Shown here one piece after another: positions 9,334 through 53,936 of a DNA stretch of 64,000 bases. How positions within the stretch are numbered: the first letter of the stretch is position 1; each line of letters begins with the position of its first letter. Origin of the DNA: Natronorubrum texcoconense. Lineage in GTDB: Archaea > Halobacteriota > Halobacteria > Halobacteriales > Natrialbaceae. Below the pieces are notes generated by a model. That model saw only the letters and a list, made by a program, of their open reading frames with translations. It was not told where the DNA came from and ran no database searches. The translations under genes were made by a program, and so were the position numbers. Location of the stretch: NCBI RefSeq assembly GCF_900100335.1, contig NZ_FNFE01000005.1:62001-126000 (forward strand), in the 5' to 3' direction.

Positions 9334-9582
9334 TTACTCGAGATCCGAGCGGCTAATTCGCCACTGTCGGAGCACTTCAGTGCTGTACGCGAGGGTATAG
9401 AGGGCGGCGTAGCCGATCACGCAGATAATCAGCGCGACCATCGCGTACAGGGCGAGAAATCCAGCGACGGAGTTAATACCGGCAATTTCGGCGACTGCCG
9501 ACAGTCCGAGCAGGACGCCAGCGACCGGCACGAGTGCGAGTAGGTACGGATGGTCGAATCGGTCCGTGTACGCATCGATCAT
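9334..9582 (-). CDS. Small membrane protein, function unknown
   Basis: Two ATG starts are in frame (9603 and 9582). A TATA-like sequence centred near 9609 is 27 bp from the second, so 9582 is chosen, giving 82 residues. The protein has two to three hydrophobic helices (about residues 10-30, 35-60) and a short charged C-terminus. No recognisable domain is present. The neighbouring divergent gene at 9714 also encodes a small two-helix membrane protein. Confidence 0.6.
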   Translation of the reverse strand: MIDAYTDRFDHPYLLALVPVAGVLLGLSAVAEIAGINSVAGFLALYAMVALIICVIGYAALYTLAYSTEVLRQWRISRSDLE

Positions 9583-24010: not shown

Positions 24011-24112
24011 TGCACAGTCTTCGCTCTCGAAAGTCTTTGCTGCAGACTCCAGGGGGCTGTCAGTGCGCTCCCACCCAAAGAATATTAACGGTCGCTTTCG
24101 AACGTGTTTACC

Positions 24113-27916: not shown

Positions 27917-28095
27917 GATCGTTCGAGGAATTGGGTCGGACCCTCATAAAAGATTGCCCTCCACCGTCTGTTGTGTGACGGACGCGCTGAAATCACGACG
28001 TTCGATAGCCGACCGTACTGGACAATATATCTTCAAAGCCACGTATAGCGGAGTGTTCGGCCGTGATAACCAAATCGTGTGACAGATATACGAAG

Positions 28096-28103
28096 TTATT
28101 TAT
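28096..28103 (+). promoter_or_regulatory. TATA box of the CUT1 sugar-transport operon
   Basis: ttatttat is centred about 27 bp upstream of the ATG at 28127. The spacing implies that transcription begins at or next to the start codon, and decides against the earlier in-frame start at 28079. Confidence 0.6.
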
Positions 28104-28126
28104 GGGTTAGTCGGTATCTCTATGGT

Positions 28127-29721: not shown

Positions 29722-30648
29722 ATGTCGACCATAGGTAAGCTCCGTCAGTTCGAACTTCCGAGAGAGTACTACCACTGGCTCTCGAAAGAGAGCGTCTGGG
29801 GGTGGCTGTTCCTCCTCCCCTCGCTGCTCGTCCTCGGTCTCGTTAGCGTCTACCCGCTCACTCGAGGAATCTATCTCAGCTTCTTCGAGTACGATGGAAT
29901 CGGCGATCCCGAGTGGGTCGGCCTCGACCACTACGCGACCATCCTCGGGTGGACCGAGTTCTGGATCGTCATGCGGAACACGCTGGTCTGGGCGTTCGCG
30001 GCCGTCGTGATCATGGCGACGATCGGACTGGGGTTCGCGATCATGCTCAACCGCGAGTTTCGCGGCCGTTCGATCGCGACGACGCTCCTGTTGCTCCCCT
30101 GGGCAGTGCCGTTCATCTCGATCGCGCTGAACTGGCGGCTGATGTACAACTTCGAACTGGGCCCGCTCAACGGCTTCCTCCGGCTCGCCGGGATCAGCGA
30201 CGGGCTGCCGTGGATCGCGAGTTCGCGGTACGCGTTGTTCTCGGTGATGCTCGCTTGGGTCTGGCGTAACTTCCCCTTCTTCATGCTCACCTTCCTGGCG
30301 GGCATGAAGGGGATTCCGGGCGACCTCTACGAGGCGGCTCGAGTCGACGGCTCCTCGAAGATCGATTCGTTTCGCCACATCACGCTGCCGTTCCTCCAGC
30401 CGGTCGTGGTCGTGATGACGCTGCTCATGAGCCTCTGGTCGCTCAACCACTTCACGTTGATCTACGTGATGACCGGCGGCGGCCCGGGCAACTCCTCGAT
30501 GGTGTTGCCGGTCTACATCTACCAGCAGGCGTTCCACTTCGGTAACATGGGACTGGCCAGTGCGATCGCGGTCGTCATGCTGCTGGTCATGCTGACGTAC
30601 GGCCTGATCTATCTGCGACTGTACCGCGAAGACGTTGGAGGGAAATAA
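29722..30648 (+). CDS. Sugar ABC transporter permease (MalF/UgpA type)
   Basis: A 308-residue permease with about six transmembrane helices. The first begins near residue 30 (WLFLLPSLLVLGLVSVYPL). The EAA coupling loop is visible as LYEAARVDGSSKIDSFRHI (about residues 205-225), which contacts the ATPase. It forms the channel with the next gene, separated by 2 bp. The ATPase partner is probably the one at 24113. Confidence 0.92.
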   Translation: MSTIGKLRQFELPREYYHWLSKESVWGWLFLLPSLLVLGLVSVYPLTRGIYLSFFEYDGIGDPEWVGLDHYATILGWTEFWIVMRNTLVWAFAAVVIMATIGLGFAIMLNREFRGRSIATTLLLLPWAVPFISIALNWRLMYNFELGPLNGFLRLAGISDGLPWIASSRYALFSVMLAWVWRNFPFFMLTFLAGMKGIPGDLYEAARVDGSSKIDSFRHITLPFLQPVVVVMTLLMSLWSLNHFTLIYVMTGGGPGNSSMVLPVYIYQQAFHFGNMGLASAIAVVMLLVMLTYGLIYLRLYREDVGGK

Positions 30649-30650
30649 CG

Positions 30651-31550
30651 ATGGCAACGGACACACAAGCGGTTCCCGAAGAAGAATCGAACACCGGCCC
30701 CCTGGGGCTGAACGATCGTCAGGTCGAGCGAGTCAAAACGATCGGGTTCCACGCGACGCTGTGGTCGCTCATCGCGCTCGTTCTGTTCCCCGTCTTCTGG
30801 ATGTTCGTCGTCTCGGTCAACCAGACGGGGTTCGGGGCGTTCGTCAGCGATCCCATCGGCTGGGCGTTGGGCGCGGACCTCTCCGGCTACTATCGAGTCT
30901 GGTACGAATCCGACTTCCCGTTCTGGTTCCAGAACAGTCTGATCGTCAGCATCGGCGCGACGGTGCTGAGCGTCGCCGTCTGTACGCTCGGCGCGTACAG
31001 CATCGGTCGGCTTCGATACCGCGGCCGCACGGCGATGGCGACGTTCCTGCTGATCACGCAGATGTTTCCGGCCATTCTGGTCGCGATCCCGCTGTTCCTC
31101 GTATTCCGGGACTTCGGGCTGTTCAACACGCTGACCGGGCTCGTGATCGCGTACGTCGCGTTCACGCTTCCGTTCGCGATCTGGATGTTGCGCGGATTCT
31201 ACGAGAACCTCCCCGAGTCTCTCGAGGAGGCGGCGATGATCGACGGGAGTACCCGCTTCGGTGCTGTCGTCCGGGTCATCCTCCCGTTGTCGGCCCCAGC
31301 GATCGCGACGACGGCGATCTTCACGTGGGTACTCGCGTGGAACGAGTTCGTCTTCGCGTTGGTCCTGATCAACGATTCCGAAAAGCAGACGCTCCCGCCG
31401 GGAATGGGCCAGTGGATCGGACAGCAAGCGCTCAACTGGGACATGATCATGGCCGGCGCACTCGGGGCGACGATCCCGATGTTGATCGTCTTCTTCCTGC
31501 TCCAGAGCTACATCGTCAAAGGGCTGGCTGAAGGCGCTGTCAAGTCGTAA
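30651..31550 (+). CDS. Sugar ABC transporter permease (MalG/UgpE type)
   Basis: A 299-residue permease with six helices, the first near residue 33. The EAA loop LEEAAMIDGSTRFGAVVRV (about 190-210) is intact. It starts 2 bp after the previous permease stop and completes the SBP-permease-permease operon. No ATPase follows; the ATPase lies upstream at 24113 beyond the antisense chaperonin. Confidence 0.92.
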   Translation: MATDTQAVPEEESNTGPLGLNDRQVERVKTIGFHATLWSLIALVLFPVFWMFVVSVNQTGFGAFVSDPIGWALGADLSGYYRVWYESDFPFWFQNSLIVSIGATVLSVAVCTLGAYSIGRLRYRGRTAMATFLLITQMFPAILVAIPLFLVFRDFGLFNTLTGLVIAYVAFTLPFAIWMLRGFYENLPESLEEAAMIDGSTRFGAVVRVILPLSAPAIATTAIFTWVLAWNEFVFALVLINDSEKQTLPPGMGQWIGQQALNWDMIMAGALGATIPMLIVFFLLQSYIVKGLAEGAVKS

Positions 31551-39329: not shown

Positions 39330-39346
39330 CTGCACACAGTGTGCAG
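39330..39346 (+). promoter_or_regulatory. Perfect palindrome between TATA box and start of the two-ATPase operon
   Basis: ctgcacac and gtgtgcag are 8-bp inverted arms around a single a. The TATA-like ctaaatg is at 39319-39325 and the ATG at 39349, 27 bp apart. The palindrome therefore fills the space up to the expected transcription start and is well placed for a repressor. Confidence 0.6.
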
Positions 39347-39348
39347 TG

Positions 39349-40476
39349 ATGACGGCTACCGCAATAGCGATCGAGTCAGTGACCAAATCGTTTCGCAGCG
39401 AGACGGTGCTTCGGGATATCCAACTGGAGGTCGAAAGCGGCGAGTTCTGCGTCGTGCTCGGCCCGAGCGGCTGTGGAAAGAGTACGCTCCTCAAGTGTAT
39501 CGCCGGATTGATCGAGTCCGACGACGGGACGATCGCGCTCGACGGTCGTGACGCGGCCGACCTCTCCGTCCAGGATCGGAATCTGGGCTACGTGTTCCAG
39601 GAGTTCGAAGAGACGTTGTTCCCCCACAAGACCGTCGCGGAGAACATCGCGTTCGGTCTCGAGCAACGGGACGACCCGCCCACTCAGTCGGAGATTGACG
39701 AGACGATCGACGAGATGTTGACCCTGTTAGCGATCGAGGAGACGCGGGACGATCTCCCGGGAGCGCTCTCGGGCGGACAACAACAACGCGTGGAGTTGGC
39801 GCGACAGCTGTGTCGCAACTGCGAGGTGATGCTCTTCGACGACCCGTTGGCCGACCTCGACTACAAGCTACAGAAACGCATGGAACTCGAGATGCGAAGC
39901 CTCCACGCGGACCTCGGGAGCACGTTCCTCTACATCACGCACAACCAGGACCAGGCGCTCAAACTCGCCGACAAGCTGGTCGTGATGAACCGCGGCATGA
40001 TCGAACAGATCGGCACCCCGGAAACGGTGTATCACAACCCGAAGAACGCGTTCGTCTGCCGGTTCGTCGGTGACTCGAACGCGCTCGTGACGAACGGCAA
40101 GCCGACCGAGGTCGGCGACGGTGTCGTGGACGTCCAGACCGAGGTCGGTCCGATGCGGGCGACTGCCCAGAACGGGACCGAGTCGGAGACCGGAATGCTG
40201 ATCGTCCGACCCGAGGCCGTCTCGCTCGAAACGGACGACTGTGACGTAACAGTCACGGGCGTTCTCGAAGGCCGAACGTACACCGGCGAAACCACCGAGT
40301 TCGCGGTGTCACTCGACGGAACCGACCGCGAGTTCTACGTCGTCGTTCCGGACAACCCCGAGATCGGTGCGATCGGTGATCCGATCGATCTCGGCTGGAA
40401 CGTCGACGACGCGCTCTACTTCGACGAACTCAGCGTAACCGACACCGTTACCATCACGGATCTCATTGAAGAATGA
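39349..40476 (+). CDS. ABC transporter ATP-binding protein with altered Walker B (PotA type, first of pair)
   Basis: An earlier GTG at 39346 is in frame, but TATA spacing favours the ATG at 39349, giving 375 residues. Walker A is GPSGCGKST and the signature is LSGGQQQR. Walker B reads MLFDDPLADLD, so the catalytic Glu position (residue 165) is Asp. The H-loop His is present in ITHNQDQ. A TOBE-like C-terminal domain follows. It overlaps the next ATPase gene by 4 bp (ATGA), implying equal co-production and perhaps a heterodimer with one weak site. The partners are probably the binding protein and permeases at 44112-49232. Confidence 0.88.
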   Translation: MTATAIAIESVTKSFRSETVLRDIQLEVESGEFCVVLGPSGCGKSTLLKCIAGLIESDDGTIALDGRDAADLSVQDRNLGYVFQEFEETLFPHKTVAENIAFGLEQRDDPPTQSEIDETIDEMLTLLAIEETRDDLPGALSGGQQQRVELARQLCRNCEVMLFDDPLADLDYKLQKRMELEMRSLHADLGSTFLYITHNQDQALKLADKLVVMNRGMIEQIGTPETVYHNPKNAFVCRFVGDSNALVTNGKPTEVGDGVVDVQTEVGPMRATAQNGTESETGMLIVRPEAVSLETDDCDVTVTGVLEGRTYTGETTEFAVSLDGTDREFYVVVPDNPEIGAIGDPIDLGWNVDDALYFDELSVTDTVTITDLIEE

Positions 40477-41678
40477 CAATGTCTGACATAGAACCCACCG
40501 AGGCGGACGTGTCGCCGCCCGAACCGGCGCTCGACGAATCGCAATCAGTTGCGCTCGAAGTCGACGAACTGACGAAGATCTACCCCGACGGAACCGTCGC
40601 CGTCGAAGAGATCAGCTTCAGTATCAGTGAGGGAGATTTCTGCGTGCTGATCGGTCCCAGCGGCTGTGGGAAGTCGACGACGCTGCACTCGCTCGTCGGC
40701 AAAATCCCGGTGACGGAGGGAACGATACGGCTCGGAGGCGAAGACATCACCGACGAGCCAACCTACGAACGCGACATCGGGCTCGTCTTTCAGGACTTCC
40801 AGCTGTTTCCACACCTGACGGTCGAGGAGAACATCGGCTACGGACTGGAACGTCTGCAGGTCGACGCAGACGACCGCACGGCTCGTGTCGAGGACATGAT
40901 CGAGATGATGCGTCTCGAGGAGCTGGTCGATCGCCACCCCGAGGAGCTCTCGGCCGGGCAGAAACAGCGCGTCGCACTCGCCCGGAGCATGGTCCTCAAG
41001 CCGAAACTCCTCCTGCTGGACGAACCGCTGGGAGACATGGACTACAAGCTCCAGAAACACATGGAACGAGAGCTGCTCCGACTCCACCGCCAGCTCGACA
41101 CGACGTTCGTCTACGTCACGCACGATCAGACGCAGGCGATGCGACTGGCCGATCAGATCGTCGTCATGAACGACGGCAAGATCGAGCAATCCGACTCCGT
41201 CGAGCGCGTTTACAACGATCCGGCGACGGCGTTCGTTTCGGCGTTCGTCGGCGACTCGAACATCTTCACGGGCGAACTGACCGACGTCAGCGACGACGGC
41301 AGTTACGCGCACATCGAGACGCCGCTCGGGACGTTTCTCGCGACGACGGCGAATCTTCGATCCGAACCGACGTCCCTCGTCGGGGAACGGATCCCCTTCT
41401 CGGTCCGGCCGCAGTACCTCGAGGTCACCGACGAACTGGACAACAGCGTCAGTTGTCAGGTCGAAGACGTTATCCACCAGCCCGGATCGGGGACGCAAGT
41501 AATCCTCGAGGCGACCACGCCCGAGGGGGCGGCCCACGAAATTCAGCTGAAGTCGTTCGACCGAATCGATCCCACGGGTACCGTCGACGTCGGCTGGAGC
41601 GCGGATCACGCGACGCTGCTCGAGCAGACGAGTATCGTCGACGGAATCGATCTCGAGACCGATATTCTCGGCGAATGA
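40473..41678 (+). CDS. ABC transporter ATP-binding protein (PotA type, second of pair)
   Basis: A 401-residue ATPase beginning in the ATGA overlap with the previous gene. It has Walker A GPSGCGKST, a slightly changed signature LSAGQKQR and an intact Walker B LLLLDEPLGDMD. The H-loop is VTHDQTQA, and a C-terminal TOBE domain includes FSVRPQYLEV. The catalytic Glu is kept here, unlike in the first ATPase. It is expected to energise the PotD/B/C-like components encoded downstream. Its stop is 45 bp from the stop of the convergent DUF3830 gene. Confidence 0.9.
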   Translation: MTMSDIEPTEADVSPPEPALDESQSVALEVDELTKIYPDGTVAVEEISFSISEGDFCVLIGPSGCGKSTTLHSLVGKIPVTEGTIRLGGEDITDEPTYERDIGLVFQDFQLFPHLTVEENIGYGLERLQVDADDRTARVEDMIEMMRLEELVDRHPEELSAGQKQRVALARSMVLKPKLLLLDEPLGDMDYKLQKHMERELLRLHRQLDTTFVYVTHDQTQAMRLADQIVVMNDGKIEQSDSVERVYNDPATAFVSAFVGDSNIFTGELTDVSDDGSYAHIETPLGTFLATTANLRSEPTSLVGERIPFSVRPQYLEVTDELDNSVSCQVEDVIHQPGSGTQVILEATTPEGAAHEIQLKSFDRIDPTGTVDVGWSADHATLLEQTSIVDGIDLETDILGE

Positions 41679-41723: not shown

Positions 41724-42170
41724 TTACGATTGGTCCGCGTCAGACTCCCGAATTCGTACGGTAACCGGCTGAACGCCGTCTCTAAGGGTCAGTTCTTCCA
41801 GTGCGGTGAGTTCCGCCCGTGTCGCCTCGAGCGTGCCGACGTGGTTGCCGGCGAGCTCGCCGGCGGGGCTCTTGAAACAGGTGGGGCCGCAGGCGACCAG
41901 AATCTCCTGTTCGTTTCTGTAGCCGGGGTATAGCAGAATGTCACCGCGAGACGGGTAGACGGTGTGGTTCTCTCGGGGGAGCTCCGGGAGGTCGATCTCG
42001 TCGATGTTGATCCACGTCGCGTGGCCGCTCCACCGGACGTGCATCAGCTCCGAGGTCAGCGGGAGGATATCTTGTAGCGCACGAACCGACTCGGGAGCCT
42101 CCGACTCGAGGAGCGGTGCGACGTACGTGTTCTCGCCGACGGTGAGGTGGAGTTCGCTCACGACGCTCAC
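41724..42170 (-). CDS. DUF3830 family protein
   Basis: The GTG at 42170 overlaps the SDR stop in a GTGA tetranucleotide and starts a 148-residue protein; the much longer upstream frame is Arg-rich shadow of the SDR gene. It carries ENHTVYPSRGDILLYPG, a typical DUF3830 core, and AGELAGNHVGTL near the C-terminus. Such proteins have a cyclophilin-like beta-barrel fold. They often occur beside hydantoinase, racemase and amidohydrolase genes, as here, but the reaction is unknown. It is translationally coupled to the SDR. Confidence 0.82.
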   Translation of the reverse strand: MSVVSELHLTVGENTYVAPLLESEAPESVRALQDILPLTSELMHVRWSGHATWINIDEIDLPELPRENHTVYPSRGDILLYPGYRNEQEILVACGPTCFKSPAGELAGNHVGTLEATRAELTALEELTLRDGVQPVTVRIRESDADQS

Positions 42171-42940
42171 CACGCGGTCCAGCCGCCGTCGACGCGCAGG
42201 ACGTGACCGGTGACGAACTCGCTTTCCTCGCCCGCCAGAAACAGCGCGGCGTCGGCGACGTCGTCGGGGGTCCCGAACCGAGGCCACGGCGTCGACGCCT
42301 GCCAGTCGGCGAGCAGTTCCTCGTCGGTCTCCCGCCACTCGGCGTTCTGTGCGGTCTCGATGATGCCCGGCGCCAGCGCGTTGACGTTGATCTCGTCGGC
42401 CGCGTAGTCGAGGGCCATCTGGCGCGTCAGATTGGAGACGCCCCCTTTCGAGGCGCAGTAGGCCGCGCTGTTCTCTCCGCCGACCAGCCCGTAGATCGAC
42501 GAGAGGTTGATGATCTTCCCGTGGTCGCTCTTTTTCAAGAGCGGGAGCGCGTGTTTGCTCGCGAGGAACACCCCCCGGAGGTTGACGTCCATGATGGCGT
42601 CGTACTCGTCCGCGGGCGCCTCGTGGGCCTGATTCTGGAAGTAGATCCCCGCGTTGTTCACGAGGATATCGAGCCCACCGAACTCGTCGGTCGCCGTCTC
42701 GAGCGCCGCCTCGATGTCGTCCTCGTCGGTCACGTCCAGTTCGACGAACTCGTAGTCGGCGTCGACCGCGTCGAGTCGGTCGAAGACGGACTCTTCGTCC
42801 TCGAGTTTCGGTTCACGTCTCACGTCGGTGACGACGACGCTCGCGCCTTCGGCGCCGAACGTCGATGCGATCGCGTTTCCGATGCCCGAACTCGCACCCG
42901 TGACGAGTGCGACACGGCCGTCTAGGCGTCCTTGTGTCAT
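42167..42940 (-). CDS. Short-chain dehydrogenase/reductase (FabG type)
   Basis: A 257-residue SDR with the nucleotide motif TGASSGIG, the NNAG motif and catalytic Ser in NLSSIYG. The YCASK (Tyr-x-x-x-Lys) active site and a C-terminal DGGW follow. It interconverts an alcohol and ketone using NAD(P)H. It is the middle gene of an asparaginase-SDR-DUF3830 operon and overlaps DUF3830 by 4 bp. In the proposed cyclic-amide pathway it could oxidise a hydroxy-acyl intermediate. Confidence 0.92.
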   Translation of the reverse strand: MTQGRLDGRVALVTGASSGIGNAIASTFGAEGASVVVTDVRREPKLEDEESVFDRLDAVDADYEFVELDVTDEDDIEAALETATDEFGGLDILVNNAGIYFQNQAHEAPADEYDAIMDVNLRGVFLASKHALPLLKKSDHGKIINLSSIYGLVGGENSAAYCASKGGVSNLTRQMALDYAADEINVNALAPGIIETAQNAEWRETDEELLADWQASTPWPRFGTPDDVADAALFLAGEESEFVTGHVLRVDGGWTAW

Positions 42941-42985: not shown

Positions 42986-43957
42986 TCACTCGCCGGCGTA
43001 CAGTCGCCGTCGCTCCTCGAGGTCGTCGTCGACCGAACAGACGACGGCCAGTTTGATCCGGGCCTTGTGAGCCGGCAGCTCACCGCCGTGGATCGCCCCG
43101 TGTGAACGGAGTGTGCTGCCGCCGCCAGCGCCGCCGTACACCGGGGCCGTCGTCCCGGCCTGACAGCGCGACGTAACAACCACGGGGGTTTCGTCGGCGA
43201 CGGCATCGTCGATCGCGTCGCCGAGCGCGCTCGTCGTGTTCCCGAGGCCCGTTCCGTCGACGACGAGTCCGTCGATGCCGTCCTCGAGCGCTCGATCGAT
43301 CGGTCGACGCCCCACGCCGGCGCCGCTGGCGACGACCGCGACGTCGCTCGTCACGTCCTCCACGTCGAACGTCTGCGAGTAACTCCTCGGCTCGCGGACG
43401 ATTCGAAGCTCCGAGCGCGTCACGGAGGCGACCGGCGCCGTGCTCGGCGAGTCGAAGGTCTCGAGCGCGCTGGTGTGGGTCTTCGTCACATCGCGGGCGG
43501 CGTGGACTTCGTCGTTCGTGACCACGTAGACGCCGTCGTCGAACCGGTCGTGAGTGACGGTTCTCACCGCCGCCAGCAGGTTCGCTGGCCCGTCAGGGCT
43601 GACCTCGTCGGGCCGTCGTTGTGCACCCGTGAACGCGACCGGAATCCCACCGTCGAGGACGAGATCGAGGAAGTACGCCGACTCCTCGATCGTATCAGTT
43701 CCGTGGGTGACGACGATGCCGTCCGCGCCGTCGGCCGCGACGCGCCGGGCGGCAGCCGCCAACTCGGTCATCGTCTCGAACCCCATATCGTAGCTCGGAA
43801 TCTGGGCAACCTCTTCGACCTCGATCTCGGCGTGACGCTCGAGGTCCGGGACGGCATCGACCAGTTCGGCCCCGCGTTTGCTCGGCGTCGCACCGCCCGA
43901 CGCGCTCGTGCTCGCGATCGTTCCGCCCGTTCCGAGGACGACAACAGTTGGTGGCAT
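42986..43957 (-). CDS. Asparaginase family amidohydrolase
   Basis: A 323-residue protein with both type I/II asparaginase threonine motifs: GTGGTIAS at the N-terminus and VTHGTDTIEES at about residues 83-93. FTGAQRRPDEVSPDGPANL follows. The reaction is hydrolysis of a side-chain amide, with L-asparagine the default substrate. Its place first in an operon with an SDR and DUF3830 protein, inside an amide-degrading island, makes a non-asparagine amide possible. A TATA-like agataacc is centred about 26 bp upstream. Confidence 0.9.
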   Translation of the reverse strand: MPPTVVVLGTGGTIASTSASGGATPSKRGAELVDAVPDLERHAEIEVEEVAQIPSYDMGFETMTELAAAARRVAADGADGIVVTHGTDTIEESAYFLDLVLDGGIPVAFTGAQRRPDEVSPDGPANLLAAVRTVTHDRFDDGVYVVTNDEVHAARDVTKTHTSALETFDSPSTAPVASVTRSELRIVREPRSYSQTFDVEDVTSDVAVVASGAGVGRRPIDRALEDGIDGLVVDGTGLGNTTSALGDAIDDAVADETPVVVTSRCQAGTTAPVYGGAGGGSTLRSHGAIHGGELPAHKARIKLAVVCSVDDDLEERRRLYAGE

Positions 43958-44111: not shown

Positions 44112-45440
44112 ATGCCAGACGGTATCAGTAGACGAAACTTTGTTGCGTACGGTGGAGCAGCAGCGGGCGCCGCGCTCGCGGGATGTGTGGGTGGCGACGA
44201 CGGACCGGCACGTCCGCTCGAGTGGATTGGCCCGGACTGGGCGGTCAGCGACGAACAGGCCGCGAAGATGGAGGAGATGTCCGACGTCGAAGTGAACACG
44301 ACGATCGCGACGATCGGTGACACGCAGGCACAGCTCCTCGGCGGCGGCTCCGAGAACACGGACGTGTTCACCTCGGACACGACCGGCTCCGGAGCGCTCA
44401 CTCGAGACAACCCGGTGACGATTCCGATGCCGGTCGAGGACCTGGACAACTGGGACGAAGAGCAGATTTCCGATCTGTTCACGAACCCGGAGGAGCGGTT
44501 GAGCCACCTCGGCGAGCAGGTCGAGACGGTCAATCGAGAGCTGTGGGTCGACGGGGACAGCCGCGACGAGATCCTGTTCTCGCCGTACGCCTACAACTTC
44601 GACGCGATGGGGTACAACCCGTCGTACGTCGACGACGTCTCCCTGTGGAGTGCGCAGTTCGACGAACAGTACGAAGGCGAAGTGATCGTCGGGGAGACGG
44701 CGGCGATCACTATCCCGCAGGCGATCATGCACCTGCTCGACAACGACATGATCGACGGAGACATCGGCGAGTTGAACGACCCGACGGAGGACCAGCTCGA
44801 TACGGCGATCGACTTCCTCATCGAGCAGAAAGAGGCCGGCCAGTTCCGCTCGACCTGGGAAGCGTACGGCGAGTCCGTGACGCTCATGGCCGGTGAGGAA
44901 GCGGTCATTGGCGACATCTGGCAGCCGGCGGCGATGGACGTTCGCCGCGAGGGGACGCCGTGTACATACGCGACGATGAGCGAAGGTATCCAGGGCTACC
45001 GGTACTGGTACGGCGGGATGGCGACGCTCGAGGGTGCGGAGGAGCGCCAGAACGTCGATCAGGTCACGTTCCTGTACGACAAGGTTCACCTCGGCGCGTG
45101 GTTCCCCGGCTTCGTGCAGGGTCGCGGCTACTCGGTTCCCCACTACGAGAACGAGGAACTCGTCCGCGACGGCTCGGACGACTCCGGCGAGGGGATGGGT
45201 CCGGAGTACTACGACTGGGCGTACCGCGGCGAGGCCACGTACGAGGAGATCGACGAACCGGCACTGTTCGATCCGCTCGACTACGACTGGTCGATGGAAG
45301 AGGGCGATCCCGACTCGGACGGCGGCACCCGCGATAGCGGACCGATCGAGGAACGGATCGACCGCATCGGGTTCTTCCAGATCTGGCCCAGCGAGGCGGA
45401 CTACATGGTCTCGCGCTGGGAGGACTTCCAGGCCGCCTGA
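44112..45440 (+). CDS. PotD-like ABC transporter solute-binding lipoprotein
   Basis: A 442-residue protein. The N-terminus has SRRNFVAYGGAAAGAALAGC, a Tat signal with lipobox. The mature part has the SBP family of spermidine/putrescine-type transporters: a segment with DTQAQLLGGG, FSPYAYNFDAMGYNP, an EEAVIGDIWQ stretch and GIQGYRYWYGG. This class also binds thiamine, opines and other small organic ions. It starts an operon with a PotB-like permease 48 bp downstream. Linked hydantoinase, asparaginase and racemase genes suggest a nitrogenous, perhaps cyclic, ligand. Confidence 0.88.
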   Translation: MPDGISRRNFVAYGGAAAGAALAGCVGGDDGPARPLEWIGPDWAVSDEQAAKMEEMSDVEVNTTIATIGDTQAQLLGGGSENTDVFTSDTTGSGALTRDNPVTIPMPVEDLDNWDEEQISDLFTNPEERLSHLGEQVETVNRELWVDGDSRDEILFSPYAYNFDAMGYNPSYVDDVSLWSAQFDEQYEGEVIVGETAAITIPQAIMHLLDNDMIDGDIGELNDPTEDQLDTAIDFLIEQKEAGQFRSTWEAYGESVTLMAGEEAVIGDIWQPAAMDVRREGTPCTYATMSEGIQGYRYWYGGMATLEGAEERQNVDQVTFLYDKVHLGAWFPGFVQGRGYSVPHYENEELVRDGSDDSGEGMGPEYYDWAYRGEATYEEIDEPALFDPLDYDWSMEEGDPDSDGGTRDSGPIEERIDRIGFFQIWPSEADYMVSRWEDFQAA

Positions 45441-45488: not shown

Positions 45489-46397
45489 ATGAGTTCCGAA
45501 CCGAAAACCGGAGCGTTGAGTCGCCTGGGTATCGACAAAGACGATCTGAACAACGAGGTAACCGGCCTGATAGCACCGACGGTCATCTGGTTTACCGTCT
45601 TCTTGCTCCTGCCGCTGCTGGTTATCCTCTACTACAGCTTCCTCACCTACTCGTCGTTCAACGTGATCCACGAGTTCACGCTCTCGGCCTGGATCGACGG
45701 CGTGTTCGGTTCCGGTGCGGTCCGCGGTGCGTTCGTCCGAACGATCGGGGTCGGAATCGTCGTCACCCTCATCACGCTCGTGTTCGGCTACCCGCTCGCG
45801 TACTATCTCCGATTCCACACCACGCCCATGGTCGGACTCGTCCTGCTGTTGTTCCTCGTCATCCCGTTCTGGACGTCGGAACTGATCCGGACGTTCGGCT
45901 GGTTCCCGATCCTGGGTCGAAACGGGATCATCAACGGACTACTGATGAACCTGGGGATCACCAGCGGGCCGATCGGCTGGCTCCTGTTCTCGTCGTTCTC
46001 CCAGGCGGTCGGCTACCTCCAGAACTACGTGGTGTTCATGGCGGCACCGATCTACATCTCGCTCTCGCAGATCGACGAGGGACTGCTCAACGCGTCCGAA
46101 ACGCTTCGCGGCAATCCCATCGAAACGTTCCGGAACGTCACGTGGCCGCTGAGCCTGCCCGGCGTCGCGATCGGCTGTATGTTCACGTTCGTCCTCACGA
46201 TCGGGAACTTCACCGTTCCGTCGTTCCTCAGCGGCGGTGCCAACACTGTTCCCACCCTGATCTACAGCCGCTACAGCCAGGGTCTGAACTACCCGTCGGC
46301 CGCCGCGCTCTCGATCACGCTACTCGTCGTGATCTTCGCGTTCGTGTTCCTCCTGTTCCGCGTCGTCGACATCACCGAGATCGCGAGCCAGGAGTAA
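45489..46397 (+). CDS. PotB-like ABC transporter permease
   Basis: A 302-residue permease with six helices, the first near residue 32 (FTVFLLLPLLVILYYSF). The EAA-like loop reads LLNASETLRGNPIETFRNVTWPL (key Ala, Gly at about 197-204). It belongs to the spermidine/putrescine permease class. It follows the binding protein in an operon. The partner permease is not next to it, because an antisense chaperonin gene lies between them. Confidence 0.9.
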   Translation: MSSEPKTGALSRLGIDKDDLNNEVTGLIAPTVIWFTVFLLLPLLVILYYSFLTYSSFNVIHEFTLSAWIDGVFGSGAVRGAFVRTIGVGIVVTLITLVFGYPLAYYLRFHTTPMVGLVLLLFLVIPFWTSELIRTFGWFPILGRNGIINGLLMNLGITSGPIGWLLFSSFSQAVGYLQNYVVFMAAPIYISLSQIDEGLLNASETLRGNPIETFRNVTWPLSLPGVAIGCMFTFVLTIGNFTVPSFLSGGANTVPTLIYSRYSQGLNYPSAAALSITLLVVIFAFVFLLFRVVDITEIASQE

Positions 46398-46476: not shown

Positions 46477-48249
46477 TCACTCGTGCCAGATCGTATCGTC
46501 CCGCTCGTCGAGATACGCCTGATGGTTCTCCGCGTGTTCGTCGTAGATCGCATCTCCCGGCTGCGTCGGCTCCTCGCTGAAGGTCGCATCGAGCGCGTCG
46601 TCGACGCGGAGCACGAGCGACGCGACGTCGACCGCGTGCTGATAACACCGGAGCCGGATCGCCGTCGGATCGAGCAGACCGGCCTCGAGTACGTCGTCGA
46701 TCTCCCCGGCGGGGAAGACGAGCCCCGGCGTGGTGCCGTTCGTCGCGTTCGTCGTTGCTTCCCGGAGCGACGTGAGTGTCGTCAGCGTGTCCATCCCCGC
46801 GTTCCGGGCAAGCGTCGAGAGGAATCGGTCCGTCGCGTCGGCGAACGCCTGGAACGCGAGCTGTTCCCGTCCGTCCGCCTCGAGTGCGGCGTCGCGGAGC
46901 GCGCTCGCCAGTTCGAGCTCCGTCGCCCCGCCACCGGGGAGGACGCCCGCTGGACCGGTCGTCTCCCCCATCGCCGTCGCGACCGCGGCGACAGCCTTTC
47001 GGATCTCCGTCGCCGCCTGCGCGCCGAGTTGGCCGTGAACGCCGCGCAGGAGGAACGTGACCGACGCCGGGTCGGAACACTCGTCGAACACCACCATGCG
47101 TCGGCGCTTTCGGCGACCCTGCCGTTTGTCGATCGTCTGCTGTTCGACCAGTCCCGCGTGGCCGAGGTCCGCCGACGTCACGTCGGTGGGATCGACGACC
47201 GGCGTCGCGCCGGTTGCACTCGCTAACTGCGCGAGTTTGAGGCGGTTGACACCGCGAATACCCACGATCCCGTGTTCGACGAGGAGCTCCTGATAGGCGT
47301 CGTTGATGCCGGTTCTGGTCACGACGACGTCGACGCCAGCGTCGACGAGACCCGCGACGACCTCCTCGCGGCGGTTCGCGAACACGTCGTCGAACGCGTC
47401 GATCTCGTCGGGCGATTCGATGACGAGTCGCTCGCCGTCCTGCTGAAAGTCCGGGTCCTGCAGGCCACCGGTCTTGCCGTCGTTGGCCTTCCCGCGCTTG
47501 AATCCGCTGATGACGAGGACGTTCGCGTCCTCCACCCGGCTCGGCATTCGATCGTCACAGATATCGTTTCGATCGAGCACCGTCCCGAAGACGAGTCGCG
47601 AGTCGTCGATCGAGCCCGAGCGAATCTGCCGAATGGCGAGCGTCTCCTCGTCCGGCATCCCGATCTGTCTCGCCGCCTCGACGGCGCCGCTCGCCCACGC
47701 TTCCCGCGCGTTTCCGACGTCGTTTCCCGTCATCGCCGATCGCGCGACCATCTCCGCGGCAGCCGTCGGATCCTCGAACGACTCGAGCGGACGCGAGAGC
47801 GACTCTATCGTTTGCTCGACACAGTCGAGTGCAGCGGTGTAGCCGTCCTCGATGGTCGTCGGATGGACGCCCATCTCGAGCAGGCGTTCCCCTTCGTCCA
47901 GCAGCGCGCCGAGCAGTACTACGGTGGTCGCGATCCCGTCGGGAACGAGCTCTCCCTCGACGTCCGTCGTTCCCGGGCGTTCCGGGGCGACGAGCCGGCG
48001 GATAATCGGCCCCATCGGGTGTTCGACCGGCAGCTCCTCGAGAATGGTCGCCCCGTCGCTGCTGACCGTATCGACCCGCGTCTCCGGCTCCCCCGGCTCC
48101 CGTTCCGTCTTCCCCGCACGGCTTTGGATCAGGGTCTCGTGGGAGAGCGGCCCCAGCGAGCTCTCGAGGACGCCGCGGATCGCTCGAGCGGCGACGATAT
48201 TTGCGTGTGGAAACTGTATTTCCGCCTCCGAATCGGTTGTGTCTCCCAT
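46477..48249 (-). CDS. Highly divergent group II chaperonin, predicted hydrolysis-defective
   Basis: The ATG at 48249 is preferred to 48264 because a TATA-like tttttacc is centred near 48284; this gives 590 residues. Chaperonin features are LGPLSHETL, SSDGATIL (Asp65), PDGIATTVVL (Asp104, replacing GDGTTT), LLRGV (401-405), PGGGATELEL (438-447) and LARNAG. A basic insertion KRQGRRKRRR lies at about 375-384. The position of GroEL Asp398 aligns with Lys418, so normal ATP hydrolysis is unlikely. It is inserted antisense between the two permeases of a PotABCD-type transporter. It is distinct from, but similarly placed to, the chaperonin at 26009. Confidence 0.85.
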   Translation of the reverse strand: MGDTTDSEAEIQFPHANIVAARAIRGVLESSLGPLSHETLIQSRAGKTEREPGEPETRVDTVSSDGATILEELPVEHPMGPIIRRLVAPERPGTTDVEGELVPDGIATTVVLLGALLDEGERLLEMGVHPTTIEDGYTAALDCVEQTIESLSRPLESFEDPTAAAEMVARSAMTGNDVGNAREAWASGAVEAARQIGMPDEETLAIRQIRSGSIDDSRLVFGTVLDRNDICDDRMPSRVEDANVLVISGFKRGKANDGKTGGLQDPDFQQDGERLVIESPDEIDAFDDVFANRREEVVAGLVDAGVDVVVTRTGINDAYQELLVEHGIVGIRGVNRLKLAQLASATGATPVVDPTDVTSADLGHAGLVEQQTIDKRQGRRKRRRMVVFDECSDPASVTFLLRGVHGQLGAQAATEIRKAVAAVATAMGETTGPAGVLPGGGATELELASALRDAALEADGREQLAFQAFADATDRFLSTLARNAGMDTLTTLTSLREATTNATNGTTPGLVFPAGEIDDVLEAGLLDPTAIRLRCYQHAVDVASLVLRVDDALDATFSEEPTQPGDAIYDEHAENHQAYLDERDDTIWHE

Positions 48250-48351
48250 CTTCGATACTGTCATTCCGTCGGGCAGCAGGTAAAAACCTATCCCGCGTCG
48301 CCACCGGTGGCGATCACGCGCGGTCGCGTCTCACGGCCCCAGCGCAGCATC

Positions 48352-48360
48352 TTTATATAA
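48352..48360 (+). promoter_or_regulatory. Separate TATA box for the PotC-like permease
   Basis: tttatataa is centred 28 bp upstream of the ATG at 48384, the leaderless spacing. It shows that the second permease has its own promoter, as required because the antisense chaperonin separates it from the first. Confidence 0.65.
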
Positions 48361-48383
48361 TATGCCACCAGTACTCAAGGTAG

Positions 48384-49335: not shown

Positions 49336-50172
49336 ATGACGTCCAAAGTCTGCCTTTCGTACGACTTCGACGCAGTATCGACGTGGCTCTGGTCATACGA
49401 CTCCTGGGATATGCCGACACGACACTCCCGGGGCGTATACGGAGCCAACATCGGCGCACCGCGGTTGCTCGACCTCCACGACAAACACGACATCCCGGCG
49501 ACGTGGTTCGTTCCCGGCCACACGATCGACAGCTTCCCGGAGATCAGCGCCGAGGTGTGGGACCGCGGCTACGACATCCAACACCACGGCTGGAGCCACA
49601 CCGGGCCCGCAACCTACGAGACCAAAGAGGACGAGAAAGCCGACGTCGAGCGAGCGATCGACTCGATCGTCGACCTCACCGGGCGCAAACCCACCGGCTA
49701 TCGCTCTCCCGCGTGGGACTACTCCGCGAACACCCTCGACATCTTAGACGAGGTCGGCATCGAGTGGGACTCGAGCAAGATGGCCTCCGACTTCGAACCC
49801 CACTGGCTCTACGGCGGCTGGAGCGCCCCCGAGGACGGTGCGTACGACCGCGGAGAGCCCACCGATATCGTCGAACTCCCCGTCTCCTGGCAGCGCGACG
49901 ACTGGCCCGCACTGACGTTCACCTGGGCGCGGCCACACCGCATGGGCTACGTAAGCGAGGACTCGCTGTTCCAGCGCTACTACGACCAGTTCGACTGGAT
50001 GCACGAGAACGTCGACGACGGCGTCTTCATCCTGACTCTCCACCCGCAGGTCATCGGCCAGGCCCACCGCATCTCGCGACTCGAGGAACTGATCGAGCAC
50101 ATGAAGAGCAAGGACGACGTCGAGTTCGAGGAGATGGACGCCGTCGCCACCGAGTTCCGCGAGAACAACTGA
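49336..50172 (+). CDS. NodB-homology (polysaccharide deacetylase/allantoinase PuuE-like) hydrolase
   Basis: A 278-residue cytoplasmic protein with the NodB metal-dependent hydrolase layout: SYDFDAVSTW at the N-terminus (Asp motif), the metal-binding HGWSH, the GYRSPAWDYS motif and ILTLHPQVIGQ (His) near the end. There is no signal peptide. Cytoplasmic members of this group include PuuE-type allantoinases that open a cyclic amide rather than deacetylate glycans, which would suit this locus. A TATA-like cttttta is centred 29 bp upstream. It converges on the PH/SHOCT gene across a large hairpin. Confidence 0.85.
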   Translation: MTSKVCLSYDFDAVSTWLWSYDSWDMPTRHSRGVYGANIGAPRLLDLHDKHDIPATWFVPGHTIDSFPEISAEVWDRGYDIQHHGWSHTGPATYETKEDEKADVERAIDSIVDLTGRKPTGYRSPAWDYSANTLDILDEVGIEWDSSKMASDFEPHWLYGGWSAPEDGAYDRGEPTDIVELPVSWQRDDWPALTFTWARPHRMGYVSEDSLFQRYYDQFDWMHENVDDGVFILTLHPQVIGQAHRISRLEELIEHMKSKDDVEFEEMDAVATEFRENN

Positions 50173-51096: not shown

Positions 51097-51663
51097 ATGA
51101 CAACAGACGACCAAACGGACGGAGAAACGCGCATCGTCGAGGGATGGCACGGCCGATACTACGAGGACTTCGAGGTCGGCGATATCTACAAGCATCCCTT
51201 CGGCCGCACCGTCACCGAGACGGACAACGTCTGGCTGACGAACGTGACGATGAACCTCAACCCGATGCACTTCAACGAAGCGTACGCCGCCGAGACGGAG
51301 TTCGGCGAACGGCTCGTCGACGGCACGTTCGTCATCGCGCTGGTCGTCGGGATGAGCGTGATCGACATCTCGGTCAACGCCACGGCCAACCTCGGCTACG
51401 ACGATATCCGCCATCACGGACCCGTCTATCACGGCGATACGCTCTTTGCCGAAAGCGAGGTGATCGACAAACGCGAGAGCGGCTCCCGAGACCACGTCGG
51501 GATCGTCACGACCGAACTGCGCGGCTACAATCAGGATGGCGACCTCGTGATCTCCCTCGAGCGAACGCCGATGGTGCTCAAACGCGAGCACGCACAGCCC
51601 AGCGCGGCGAAACCCCCGGGATGGCCGGAGGGGATCGGAACGCAGCCGGAGACCGACTCATGA
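51097..51663 (+). CDS. MaoC-like (R)-specific enoyl-CoA hydratase family protein
   Basis: A 188-residue single hot-dog domain protein. It begins with GRYYEDFEVGDIYKHPFGRTVTETD-type features, then the MHFNEAYA motif (Asn/His catalytic region replacing the usual DxNPxH), GPVYHGDTL and a long C-terminal tail. Relatives hydrate enoyl-CoA or mesaconyl/methylfumaryl-CoA. A purine-rich gagagg lies about 6 nt before the ATG. The stop overlaps the CoA-transferase start by 4 bp (ATGA), coupling hydration to CoA transfer. Confidence 0.87.
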   Translation: MTTDDQTDGETRIVEGWHGRYYEDFEVGDIYKHPFGRTVTETDNVWLTNVTMNLNPMHFNEAYAAETEFGERLVDGTFVIALVVGMSVIDISVNATANLGYDDIRHHGPVYHGDTLFAESEVIDKRESGSRDHVGIVTTELRGYNQDGDLVISLERTPMVLKREHAQPSAAKPPGWPEGIGTQPETDS

Positions 51664-53102
51664 GCGGCCGACTCGAGAAGACGGACGCGCCGGTCGACGC
51701 CGCGACGGCCGCCGCCCACGTCGACCCCGATGCGGTCGTCGCCGTGAGCGGGTTCGGCGCGGTCGGCTACCCGAAAGCCCTTCCGCTGGCCCTTGCGGCC
51801 GACGATCGCGACCTCTCGCTGACGATCATCAGCGGGGGCAGCGTCGGTAAGGAGATCGACACGGCACTCGTCGAAGCGGACGCGATCGCTCGTCGCTATC
51901 CCTACCAGGCGAGAGCCGCGGCGCGGGAGGCGGTCAACGACGAAACGATCGCCTTTCAGGATCGGTTCATCTCGAAACTGGGCGACGAGGTCGAACTCGG
52001 ACACGTTCCGGCGCCCGACGTCGCGATCGTCGAGGCGGTGGCCGTCGGCGACGGCTGGTTCGTCCCCTCGCTCTCGATCGGCCACACCGTCGCGTACGTC
52101 AGGGCTGCGGAGAAGCTGATCATCGAGGTGAACGACTCGATTCCGCGCGACGTCGGCCGGTTTCACGACGTCTACGAGCGCTCGCTGCCGCCGAATCGAG
52201 AGTCGATCCCGCTCGAGGGGCCGGCGGACCGAATCGGCGACTCGCGGATCGAGTTCGATCCGGCGAATCTCCTCGCCGTCGTCGAGACCGAGGCGGCCGA
52301 CGATCCGTACGACTTCCGCGAGCCCTCGGCGACCGACCGGGAGATCGCCGCGAACCTCGCGACGTTCCTCGAGTCCGAACTCGAGCGCTGTTCGATGTTC
52401 GACGACCGGATCGCCCTTCAGTTCGGCGTCGGAAGCCTCGGAAACGCGCTCATGGGCGCGCTGTCGTCGATCGACTTCGGCGACCGGGACGTCTACTACT
52501 ACGGCGAGGTGTTTCAGGACGGGTTGCTCGAGATGATCGAGAACGGGACGCTCGCGGGCGCCAGCGCGACGGCGTTCGCCCTTACCTCGGCTGGCCAACA
52601 GCGGCTGTTCGACGACATCGACGGCTACAGCGAGTCGATCGTCCTTCGGCCCGCGGACCTCTCGAACAACCCGGCGCTGATCGATCGGTTCGGCGTCGTC
52701 GGGATCAACAGCGCCATCGAGGTCGATCTCTACGGACACGCGAACTCGACGCACGTCGACGGCTCGCGCGTGCTGAACGGGGTCGGCGGCAGCGGCGATT
52801 TCAACCGAAACGCCGCCCTCTCGATTACGACGCTTCCCTCGAGACACGGCGCGGAGACGTCGTGTATCGTCCCGATGTGTCCGCACGTCGACCACTCGGA
52901 GCACGACATCTCGGTCGTGATCACCGAACAGGGCGTCGCCGACCTCCGCGGGCGCTCGCCTCGCGAGCGCAGCCGGCTGCTCATCGAGCACTGCGGCCAC
53001 CCGCAGTTCGTCGACGACCTCGAGGCGTACGTCGCCCGCGGCGAGACGGGGGGCGGTCACATTCCCCACCACCTCGGGTCGGCGTTCGACTGGCGATCCT
53101 GA
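51660..53102 (+). CDS. Acetyl-CoA hydrolase/CoA-transferase family protein
   Basis: The ATG overlaps the MaoC stop; the upstream open frame is a shadow. The 480-residue protein has the two-domain layout of family I CoA-transferases (succinyl-CoA:acetate, 4-hydroxybutyrate CoA-transferase). The probable catalytic Glu is Glu283 in YYYGEVFQDG. GVGGSGDFNRNA (Gly-rich CoA site) and ITEQGVADLRG lie in the second half. It would activate a carboxylic acid as its CoA ester for the MaoC and acyl-CoA dehydrogenase enzymes. The acid is not known. Confidence 0.88.
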   Translation: MSGRLEKTDAPVDAATAAAHVDPDAVVAVSGFGAVGYPKALPLALAADDRDLSLTIISGGSVGKEIDTALVEADAIARRYPYQARAAAREAVNDETIAFQDRFISKLGDEVELGHVPAPDVAIVEAVAVGDGWFVPSLSIGHTVAYVRAAEKLIIEVNDSIPRDVGRFHDVYERSLPPNRESIPLEGPADRIGDSRIEFDPANLLAVVETEAADDPYDFREPSATDREIAANLATFLESELERCSMFDDRIALQFGVGSLGNALMGALSSIDFGDRDVYYYGEVFQDGLLEMIENGTLAGASATAFALTSAGQQRLFDDIDGYSESIVLRPADLSNNPALIDRFGVVGINSAIEVDLYGHANSTHVDGSRVLNGVGGSGDFNRNAALSITTLPSRHGAETSCIVPMCPHVDHSEHDISVVITEQGVADLRGRSPRERSRLLIEHCGHPQFVDDLEAYVARGETGGGHIPHHLGSAFDWRS

Positions 53103-53204
53103 CGCCGGGCCGACGGTACTATCGTTACAGCGGCGGTGCGGCGCGGTTCGACCGGAGAAACAGCTTTGCCCGTCCCCGTCCACCTCTCCCCGTGGCGCGA
53201 GACT

Positions 53205-53936
53205 ATGAAAATCAAAGCTATCAATCCGAACACCACCCTCGAGATGACCGAGAACATCGGCGCGGTCGCGAACAAGTACACGAGCGACGACACTGAAGTC
53301 GTCGCCGCCTCCCCCGACCGCGGGCCGATCAGTATCGAATCCTACTACGACGACTACCTCGCCGTCCCCGGCATCCTCGACGAGATCCTCAAGGACGAGG
53401 ACGACGAGTTCGACGCGTTCGTCAACTCCTGCTGGGGCGATCCGGGGCTCGACGCCTGCCGCGAAGTCACCGACAAACCGGTCGTCGGCATCGCCGAGGG
53501 CTCGATGTACGTCGCGAACATGCTGGGAGCGAACTTCTCGGTCGTCACGATCCTCCCTCGAGCGCGCGATTTCATCGAGGAAGCGGTCAGAAAGACGGGG
53601 CTGGACGGCCACTGCGCGTCGGTCCGCTGTACCGAGTTGACCGTCGTCGAAACCGAAAACACGCGTGACGCGGCCGCGGAGGCCCTTCTCGAGGCGAGCT
53701 GGGAGGCGGTCGAGGAGGACGGCGCCGAAGTGATCTGTCTCGGCTGCGCCGGGATGGGCGGCCTCGACGAACCGCTCGAAGCTGAACTGCCCGTCCCCGT
53801 CATCGACAGCGTCGGCGCGGGGGCCGTGCTCGCGGAGAGTCTCGTCCAGCTCGGCAAGCGCACGAGCACGGTTAGAACCTACAAACGGCCGGAGTCGAAG
53901 GAGATCGTCGGCTACCCCGAACGCTACCAGTTGTAG
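53205..53936 (+). CDS. Asp/Glu/hydantoin racemase family protein
   Basis: The ATG at 53205 begins MKIKAINPNTT, the standard start of the family, so the 23 upstream codons are excluded; length is 243 residues. The two catalytic Cys positions are Cys76 in NSCWGDPG and Cys181 in LGCAGM. Members racemise hydantoins, aspartate or glutamate, or act as maleate isomerase or decarboxylase. Being close to two hydantoinase pairs favours hydantoin racemase (HyuE-like) or a related epimerase. Confidence 0.88.
   Translation: MKIKAINPNTTLEMTENIGAVANKYTSDDTEVVAASPDRGPISIESYYDDYLAVPGILDEILKDEDDEFDAFVNSCWGDPGLDACREVTDKPVVGIAEGSMYVANMLGANFSVVTILPRARDFIEEAVRKTGLDGHCASVRCTELTVVETENTRDAAAEALLEASWEAVEEDGAEVICLGCAGMGGLDEPLEAELPVPVIDSVGAGAVLAESLVQLGKRTSTVRTYKRPESKEIVGYPERYQL

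What the first reader, a model, noticed from the sequence alone, without database searches (positions are those of the whole stretch)
46477..48249. Second, independent divergent chaperonin antisense between two permease genes
This 590-residue chaperonin keeps the NDG-type Asp65 and Asp104 but has PDGIATT for GDGTTT, Lys418 at the GroEL Asp398 position and a basic insertion near 375-384. It divides the PotB- and PotC-like permease genes. Two unrelated-looking transporters in one window each holding an antisense divergent chaperonin is unlikely to be chance, and suggests a repeated association of chaperonin-like proteins with solute import modules.
Basis: partly seen in the sequence, partly recalled or inferred. 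Interest (0 to 1): 0.78.

Follow-up and report, generated by a model that had tools for sequence, protein, structure and literature searches.

The report
Chaperonin dedicated to a nutrient importer
In salt-loving archaea, odd copies of the barrel-shaped protein-folding machine are fixed partners of particular nutrient-uptake (or amide-degrading) gene sets rather than general housekeepers, and the copy in this window travels without exception with one importer although it has lost the residue that normally burns ATP.

Summary
Window 46477-48249 (-) encodes a 590-aa group II chaperonin-fold protein (CPN_B) set against, and between, PotB- and PotC-like permease genes. It is not a decaying housekeeping copy: it is a separate, well-supported family under purifying selection (dN/dS 0.13-0.26). 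Its shared features are loss of the catalytic Asp (Lys in 14 of 15), PDG[VI] in place of GDGTT, Asn for the nucleotide-sensing Lys, an Arg/Lys-rich hairpin and a C-terminal tail without the GGM repeat. In 392 haloarchaeal genomes CPN_B occurs in 15 and the PotC orthologue in exactly those 15. The window's other chaperonin (CPN_A) and its permease share exactly 17 genomes. A scan of 34 genomes found 22 further accessory-chaperonin loci: 17 lie within 5 kb of ABC-importer permeases and 5 beside acetamidase/formamidase, against 0 of 33 controls (Fisher p = 4e-10 for permeases). One origin for all accessory families is rejected (AU p = 0.002), so recruitment recurred. Best reading: client-dedicated chaperonins, working like MmoG/MimG of bacterial monooxygenase operons; here probably an ATP-binding, hydrolysis-deficient subunit that assists a component of the importer. 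The client is not shown. The window's two chaperonins may share one origin.

The parts
46477..48249 (-). CPN_B, divergent group II chaperonin (590 aa; alternative in-frame start at 48264)
   Evidence: Pfam PF00118 298 bits; 14 further orthologues; AF2 pLDDT 81.6, pTM 0.81
48250..48383 (.). 134-bp shared divergent promoter region: TATA-like GGTTTTTACC (about 48279-48288) reading toward CPN_B and TTTATATA (about 48352-48359) reading toward PotC
   Evidence: sequence; both elements recognisable in most related loci L066-L068, L070 and L076, less clearly in L069; promoter function inferred
45489..46397 (+). PotB-like permease, convergent with CPN_B (about 80 bp gap)
   Evidence: PF00528 weak, NCBIfam PotB-like 137 bits
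48384..49232 (+). PotC-like permease, divergent from CPN_B
   Evidence: PF00528; orthologue in exactly the 15 CPN_B genomes
44112..45440 (+). Solute-binding lipoprotein with Tat twin-arginine motif (SRRNF) and lipobox (LAGC); candidate client
   Evidence: (just below Pfam cut-off), motif
39346..40476 (+). PotA-like ATPase 1 of the importer
   Evidence: PF00005; found at all 14 other CPN_B loci
40473..41678 (+). PotA-like ATPase 2 of the importer
   Evidence: PF00005; found at all 14 other CPN_B loci
49336..50172 (+). Polysaccharide-deacetylase/PuuE-like enzyme, usual but not universal partner
   Evidence: PF01522; close orthologue at 10 of 14 loci
42986..43957 (-). Asparaginase-family enzyme (variable cluster member)
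   Evidence: 8 of 14 loci
42167..42940 (-). SDR oxidoreductase (variable cluster member)
   Evidence: 7 of 14 loci
51144..53102 (+). Acetyl-CoA hydrolase/transferase-like (variable cluster member)
   Evidence: 4 of 14 loci
53136..53936 (+). Asp/Glu/hydantoin racemase (variable cluster member)
   Evidence: PF01177; 5 of 14 loci
26009..27652 (-). CPN_A, second divergent chaperonin, separate family
   Evidence: PF00118 311 bits; family in 17 of 392 genomes
24104..25309 (+). MalK-type ATPase of the CPN_A importer
   Evidence: near CPN_A at all other loci
28079..29677 (+). SBP of the CPN_A importer with internal Tat motif (SRRGFM)
   Evidence: motif
29722..30648 (+). Permease 1 of the CPN_A importer
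   Evidence: PF00528; orthologue in exactly the 17 CPN_A genomes
30651..31550 (+). Permease 2 of the CPN_A importer
   Evidence: PF00528

Best explanation
CPN_B is a client-dedicated group II chaperonin (or chaperonin subunit), the one non-transport gene fixed in an importer module of two PotA-like ATPases, PotB, PotC and a Tat-type solute-binding lipoprotein, usually set in an amide/ureide-catabolism island. Shown: it is an old conserved family under purifying selection, inherited without exception with this importer; it keeps the chaperonin fold and two nucleotide-binding Asp residues; it has lost the hydrolytic Asp and the nucleotide-sensing-loop Lys and carries family-specific elements (Arg/Lys hairpin, own C-terminal tail); it is arranged divergently from PotC in the window and at many other loci. 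Inferred: it binds ATP but hydrolyses it little or not at all, so it acts either as a non-cycling holdase/assembly scaffold or as a specialised subunit in rings with CCT1-3, which supply the hydrolysis. Its client is a component of the module; the best guess is the solute-binding protein, which must fold in the cytoplasm before Tat export, with the PotA ATPases next. CPN_A and other accessory families would do the same for other importers or for acetamidase/formamidase.
For: Exact two-way co-occurrence of CPN_B with its PotC (15/392) and of CPN_A with its permease (17/392). Linkage persists through inversions and reordering, and at the 14 other loci only transporter genes are as constant as the chaperonin, catabolic genes being variable. 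Twelve loci fetched separately by name agree (in one, Halobium, the permeases lie outside the fetched stretch), as do two annotated B plasmids. 17/22 further accessory loci lie by importer permeases and 5/22 by acetamidase/formamidase, against 0/33 controls. Recruitment is not single: family C stems from cct2 and E groups with cct1, one accessory clade rejected. fmdA and the chaperonin lie about 30 bp apart in one direction in Haloarcula marismortui and Natronomonas pharaonis, where a single soluble enzyme is the obvious client. Family-wide loss of the catalytic Asp with conserved new motifs and tail. dN/dS 0.13-0.26. Twin-arginine motifs in 11 of 11 SBP44 orthologues in the fetched stretches and in most SBP28 ones whose start could be read. 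Mm-Cpn D386A binds but cannot hydrolyse ATP (PMC5019054).
Against: No direct evidence of physical interaction or of a client. Tat-type SBPs are common in haloarchaea (established knowledge), so they do not explain why this SBP needs a private chaperonin. CPN_B is usually on the strand opposite the transporter genes, so it is not co-transcribed with most of them. In Halobium and Haladaptatus the permease lies about 14-16 kb from CPN_B, and CPN_B sits beside an amidohydrolase and the deacetylase instead. D386A greatly weakens client folding by Mm-Cpn, so a hydrolysis-dead protein may not fold clients alone.
Confidence: 0.6

Rival explanations
1. Regulator or sensor: the hydrolysis-deficient chaperonin-like protein binds ATP and/or the solute or a transporter part and controls transcription or activity of the importer, like a divergently encoded local regulator.
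For: Divergent gene arrangement sharing a 134-bp promoter region with PotC; ATPase loss with retained nucleotide-binding Asp residues and a conserved basic hairpin.
Against: No DNA-binding domain was found by Pfam; the model is a complete chaperonin; some B loci encode an IclR regulator of their own; accessory families C and E keep the catalytic residues, and E and some F members are co-directional with their partners.
Confidence: 0.15
2. The client is a catabolic enzyme of the island (for example the PuuE-like deacetylase, an amidase or an amidohydrolase) and the importer is linked only because both serve one substrate.
For: Family F pairs with an amidase-type enzyme, acetamidase/formamidase; in L073-L075 CPN_B is beside amidohydrolase, amidase and deacetylase genes with the permease 14-16 kb off.
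Against: No single enzyme is present at every B locus: close deacetylase orthologues at 10 of 14, asparaginase 8 of 14, SDR 7 of 14, whereas the transporter genes always are.
Confidence: 0.15
3. Passenger: the chaperonin is carried along by a mobile megaplasmid gene island without functional link to the importer.
For: Patchy distribution across 9 genera and 6 families, often on plasmids.
Against: Gene order is reshuffled and other cargo comes and goes while chaperonin and transporter stay; the same kind of association arose with other chaperonin lineages and other transporters; purifying selection.
Confidence: 0.07
4. General extra folding capacity or a decaying thermosome duplicate.
For: Loss of the catalytic Asp and a higher rate than several neighbours (dN/dS 0.13-0.26 against 0.03-0.15 for SBP, PotB, PotC and deacetylase).
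Against: Old monophyletic family (100/100), still under purifying selection, with newly conserved motifs and tail; in the 392 genomes never found without its importer.
Confidence: 0.03

Closest known systems
Thermosome / CCT1-3 (haloarchaeal housekeeping group II chaperonins; Mm-Cpn of Methanococcus maripaludis)
   Same: Fold and full-length homology (298 bits; 30-35% identity to haloarchaeal thermosomes; Foldseek TM 0.83-0.88 normalised to most thermosome chains); the two nucleotide-binding Asp residues
   Different: Separate family; catalytic Asp, GDGTT motif, NSL Lys and the GGM-type tail absent; Arg/Lys hairpin and new tail added; linked to one importer
MmoG / MimG, GroEL-like proteins of bacterial soluble di-iron monooxygenase operons
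   Same: A chaperonin paralogue encoded inside one functional gene cluster and thought to serve that cluster's protein (MmoG: PMC9324122; MimG from general knowledge)
   Different: Group I (GroEL-like), soluble oxygenase client; here group II, importer-linked, hydrolysis-deficient, in archaea
Vertebrate BBS chaperonin-like proteins (MKKS/BBS6, BBS10, BBS12)
   Same: Divergent group II paralogues; MKKS and BBS12 have altered ATP-hydrolysis motifs (PMC2846930); BBS6/10/12 act in assembly of the BBSome (general knowledge)
   Different: Eukaryotic; no operon or importer link; separate descent
PotABCD / MalFGK-type ABC importers
   Same: The partner modules are ordinary members of these transporter types
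   Different: None of the described importers known to me carries a chaperonin as a fixed gene

Membership tests
Group II chaperonin (Cpn60/TCP-1 superfamily) | Full-length Cpn60_TCP1 homology and three-domain fold | tested here: met
   PF00118 298 bits, residues 26-553; AF2 model matches Mm-Cpn and thermosome chains over nearly the whole length
Group II chaperonin (Cpn60/TCP-1 superfamily) | Nucleotide-binding Asp in NDG and in GDGTT | tested here: met
   Asp65 and Asp104 invariant in 15 of 15
Active thermosome | Catalytic Asp (Mm-Cpn Asp386) | tested here: not met
   Lys in 14 of 15, Gln in 1; alignment caveat between Lys418 and Ala422, no Asp either way
Active thermosome | GDGTT[TS] phosphate-binding motif | tested here: not met
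   PDG[VI] or similar without the Thr run
Active thermosome | Nucleotide-sensing-loop Lys (TGK) | tested here: not met
   TGND in 15 of 15; role of this Lys from general knowledge
NCBIfam thermosome subunit models | Score above curated cut-offs | tested here: not met
   298 against 450 (alpha), 286 against 400 (beta), 293 against 671 bits (TIGR02339)
Group II chaperonin (Cpn60/TCP-1 superfamily) | Built-in lid and double-ring assembly | not testable with these tools
   Single-chain model only; the lid region (about 249-277) is poorly predicted
MmoG/MimG-like dedicated chaperonin | Encoded inside the client's gene cluster | tested here: met
   Clustered with the importer at all loci examined; within 1.3 kb of a permease at 12 of 15 and about 14-16 kb at 3. 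That the importer is the client is not shown
MmoG/MimG-like dedicated chaperonin | Group I (GroEL-like) sequence | tested here: not met
   GroEL models 54-82 bits against cut-offs of 352 or more
MmoG/MimG-like dedicated chaperonin | Client needs it for folding | not testable with these tools
   requires experiment

The most novel reading that the evidence does not exclude
Haloarchaea run a modular system in which thermosome paralogues are repeatedly recruited as one-client assembly factors for ABC importers and amide hydrolases. CPN_B is the extreme form: a hydrolysis-dead subunit that, alone or in mixed rings with CCT1-3, holds the importer's Tat-exported binding protein or ATPase until assembly, its client specificity written in the family-specific hairpin and C-terminal tail.
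Probability: 0.3. Interest if true: 0.88.

Novelty: new variant of a known kind. Interest (0 to 1): 0.77.

Why it matters
Chaperonins are treated as generalists, and what individual archaeal paralogues do is largely open. Here natural one-to-one pairs of chaperonin and presumed client have arisen several times, with graded loss of the ATPase, in a group that includes genetically tractable halophiles. This makes client specificity, and the need for hydrolysis, directly testable, and it gives an archaeal counterpart to MmoG and to the BBS chaperonin-like assembly factors. It also means that 'thermosome subunit' annotations on haloarchaeal megaplasmids often mark specialised partners of nutrient-uptake modules, not housekeeping genes.

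Tried and rejected
Decaying housekeeping copy: rejected by tree and dN/dS. Chance adjacency: rejected by co-occurrence and controls. A single origin of all accessory chaperonins: rejected (AU p = 0.002); a common origin of A and B, or of A, B and D, not rejected (p = 0.23 and 0.42). A particular catabolic enzyme as universal partner of CPN_B: no enzyme is at all loci. Ten literature searches found no report of thermosome paralogues tied to importers or to acetamidase; an acetamidase study in Halorubrum lacusprofundi does not mention a chaperonin. Mirror-tree comparison to name the client was not run, because the whole cluster is inherited together.

Full report
WHAT IS THERE. The minus-strand ORF at 46477-48249 encodes 590 aa (595 from an in-frame ATG at 48264). 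Pfam gives Cpn60_TCP1 at 298 bits over residues 26-553. NCBIfam thermosome models match well below their cut-offs (298 against 450 for alpha). Without templates, AlphaFold2 gives a confident chaperonin (pLDDT 81.6, pTM 0.81) whose best PDB matches are Methanococcus maripaludis Cpn and thermosomes (TM 0.83-0.88 normalised to most of these chains). It lies opposite and between PotB-like (45489-46397) and PotC-like (48384-49232) permease genes; upstream are a solute-binding protein (44112-45440) and two PotA-like ATPases (39346-41678). The genome holds five Cpn60_TCP1 genes: three housekeeping thermosomes elsewhere, CPN_B, and CPN_A at 26009-27652.

A REAL, CONSTRAINED FAMILY. In 392 genomes of the order, 15 have a CPN_B orthologue (448-1280 bits); every other best hit is a thermosome at 217 bits or less. 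Pairwise dN/dS against four congeneric loci is 0.13-0.26. Family-wide features: Asp65 and Asp104 invariant; the catalytic Asp is Lys in 14 and Gln in one; PDG[VI] replaces GDGTT in most; TGND replaces TGKG in all; an Arg/Lys-rich stretch at 374-384 in all; and in most members a C-terminal tail of the type GDAIYDExAExHQxxLEExDxTIW, where two of the three housekeeping thermosomes of this genome, and relatives, end in GGM repeats. Pairwise alignment leaves open whether Lys418 or Ala422 faces the Asp386 position; no Asp is there either way. Mm-Cpn D386A binds but cannot hydrolyse ATP and complements GroEL loss poorly (PMC5019054).

LOCKED TO ITS IMPORTER. The PotC orthologue is found in 15 of 392 genomes, exactly the 15 with CPN_B, and no other genome has a hit at 1e-60. 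The genera are nine, the families six, and presence is patchy within them. At the 14 other loci both PotA genes are always present, and SBP, PotB and PotC at 11 inside the 20-kb stretch; at the remaining three PotC lies 14-16 kb away, and SBP and PotB were seen beside PotC in the one annotated longer stretch. Deacetylase (10), asparaginase (8) and SDR (7) come and go. Orders and orientations change, the linkage does not. Loci fetched separately by organism name (Natronorubrum bangense, Halorarius halobius, Halobellus rarus and clavatus, and others) and annotated plasmids of Haloarcula litorea and Halobellus limi agree. The islands carry amidases, hydantoinase/oxoprolinase, racemase and PuuE-like genes, so the solute is probably an amide or ureide; this is inference.

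THE SECOND CHAPERONIN. CPN_A's family is in 17 genomes; its importer's permease is in exactly those 17 (at least 417 bits, next hit 212). MalK, SBP and both permeases surround it at all loci, in several arrangements. Its ATPase is in decline rather than lost: the GDG-TT motif is kept, the catalytic Asp is kept in some lineages and lost in others, and NNG replaces NDG only in this genome and one congener.

A GENERAL PATTERN. A Pfam scan of 34 genomes (chosen for size and for carrying A or B, not for neighbours of the new genes) showed further divergent chaperonins. Of 22 such loci, 17 lie within 5 kb of an ABC-importer permease and the other 5 within 3.2 kb of an acetamidase/formamidase gene; of 33 control loci (31 housekeeping, 2 near-housekeeping copies) none has either within 5 kb (Fisher p = 3.9e-10 for permeases). 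Family C pairs with MalK/MalFG-type genes, D is a chaperonin pair beside MalFGK-type genes, E follows Opp/Dpp-type genes, F pairs with fmdA. In Haloarcula marismortui pNG700 and Natronomonas pharaonis PL131, fmdA and the chaperonin are about 30 bp apart in one direction. Annotated plasmids mostly agree; one Natrinema plasmid copy does not, and a Haladaptatus pair has only an SBP gene several kb off in the stretch read. The loci are related within families, so the p-value overstates independence; eight families with several contexts is the fairer count.

ORIGINS. Families A to F are each one side of a branch (99-100% support). C stems from cct2 (100/99 for the joint clade) and E groups with cct1 (97/96); holding all accessory genes as one clade is rejected (AU p = 0.002). 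A, B and D are deep and long-branched; a common origin is not rejected. So recruitment to importers happened at least three times on this tree (C, E, and one or more of the deep families), but the window's two chaperonins need not be independent of each other.

HOW IT MAY WORK. Dedicated folding or assembly of one module protein is the reading that covers all families, including F, where one soluble enzyme is the neighbour. For importers the cytosol-folded parts are the ATPases and the SBP; SBP44 orthologues found carry RRNF/RRNFM-type twin-arginine motifs and mostly lipoboxes, as do most SBP28 orthologues whose start could be read, and Tat substrates are exported folded (established knowledge). 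CPN_B would bind ATP without hydrolysing it, as a holdase or scaffold, or in mixed rings driven by CCT1-3. The 134-bp region between CPN_B and PotC holds two oppositely directed TATA-like elements recognisable at most related loci with this arrangement, suggesting joint expression. Steps from 'binds ATP' onward are inference.

KNOWN RELATIVES. MmoG of methane monooxygenase operons is the closest functional parallel (PMC9324122), MimG likewise (general knowledge), but both are GroEL-like. Vertebrate BBS chaperonin-like proteins parallel the loss of the hydrolysis motif (PMC2846930). No report of importer-linked thermosome paralogues was found in ten searches of an open-access library; subscription papers were not covered.

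LIMITS.

Noticed in passing
L111, L099, L108, L110, L142; L165 (Haloarcula marismortui pNG700), L166 (Natronomonas pharaonis PL131): A chaperonin family sits beside acetamidase/formamidase (fmdA), in a two-gene operon-like arrangement in two well-known species; the five chaperonins read in full end in a conserved tail with GYPWA[IV]GH, mostly His-rich.
   Followed up: partly
L103, L104, L105, L107 (also L170): Pairs of two unlike divergent chaperonins encoded side by side, mostly in opposite directions, beside MalFGK-type genes; the second member (D2) lacks the catalytic Asp in all sequences seen and most D1 members do too.
   Followed up: partly
L112-L115, L141: Chaperonins close to cct1 beside Opp/Dpp-type importer genes keep all catalytic residues but carry an insertion at the same hairpin as the basic insertion of CPN_B.
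   Followed up: partly
L095 (G156), about 9524-9530: CPN_A of this genome is split into two reading frames at about residue 274 (frameshift or assembly error) although its importer genes are present.
   Followed up: no
L109 / L094 (G271): One cluster carries two chaperonins, CPN_A and a cct1-like one (50% identical to cct1), around the same importer.
   Followed up: no
window 25316-26008 (+): A 230-aa ORF between MalK and CPN_A has no Pfam match.
   Followed up: no
window 36472-38448 (+): An AAA_23 / SMC-like protein of 658 aa; a 37% identical relative lies near the acetamidase-linked chaperonin in L110.
   Followed up: no
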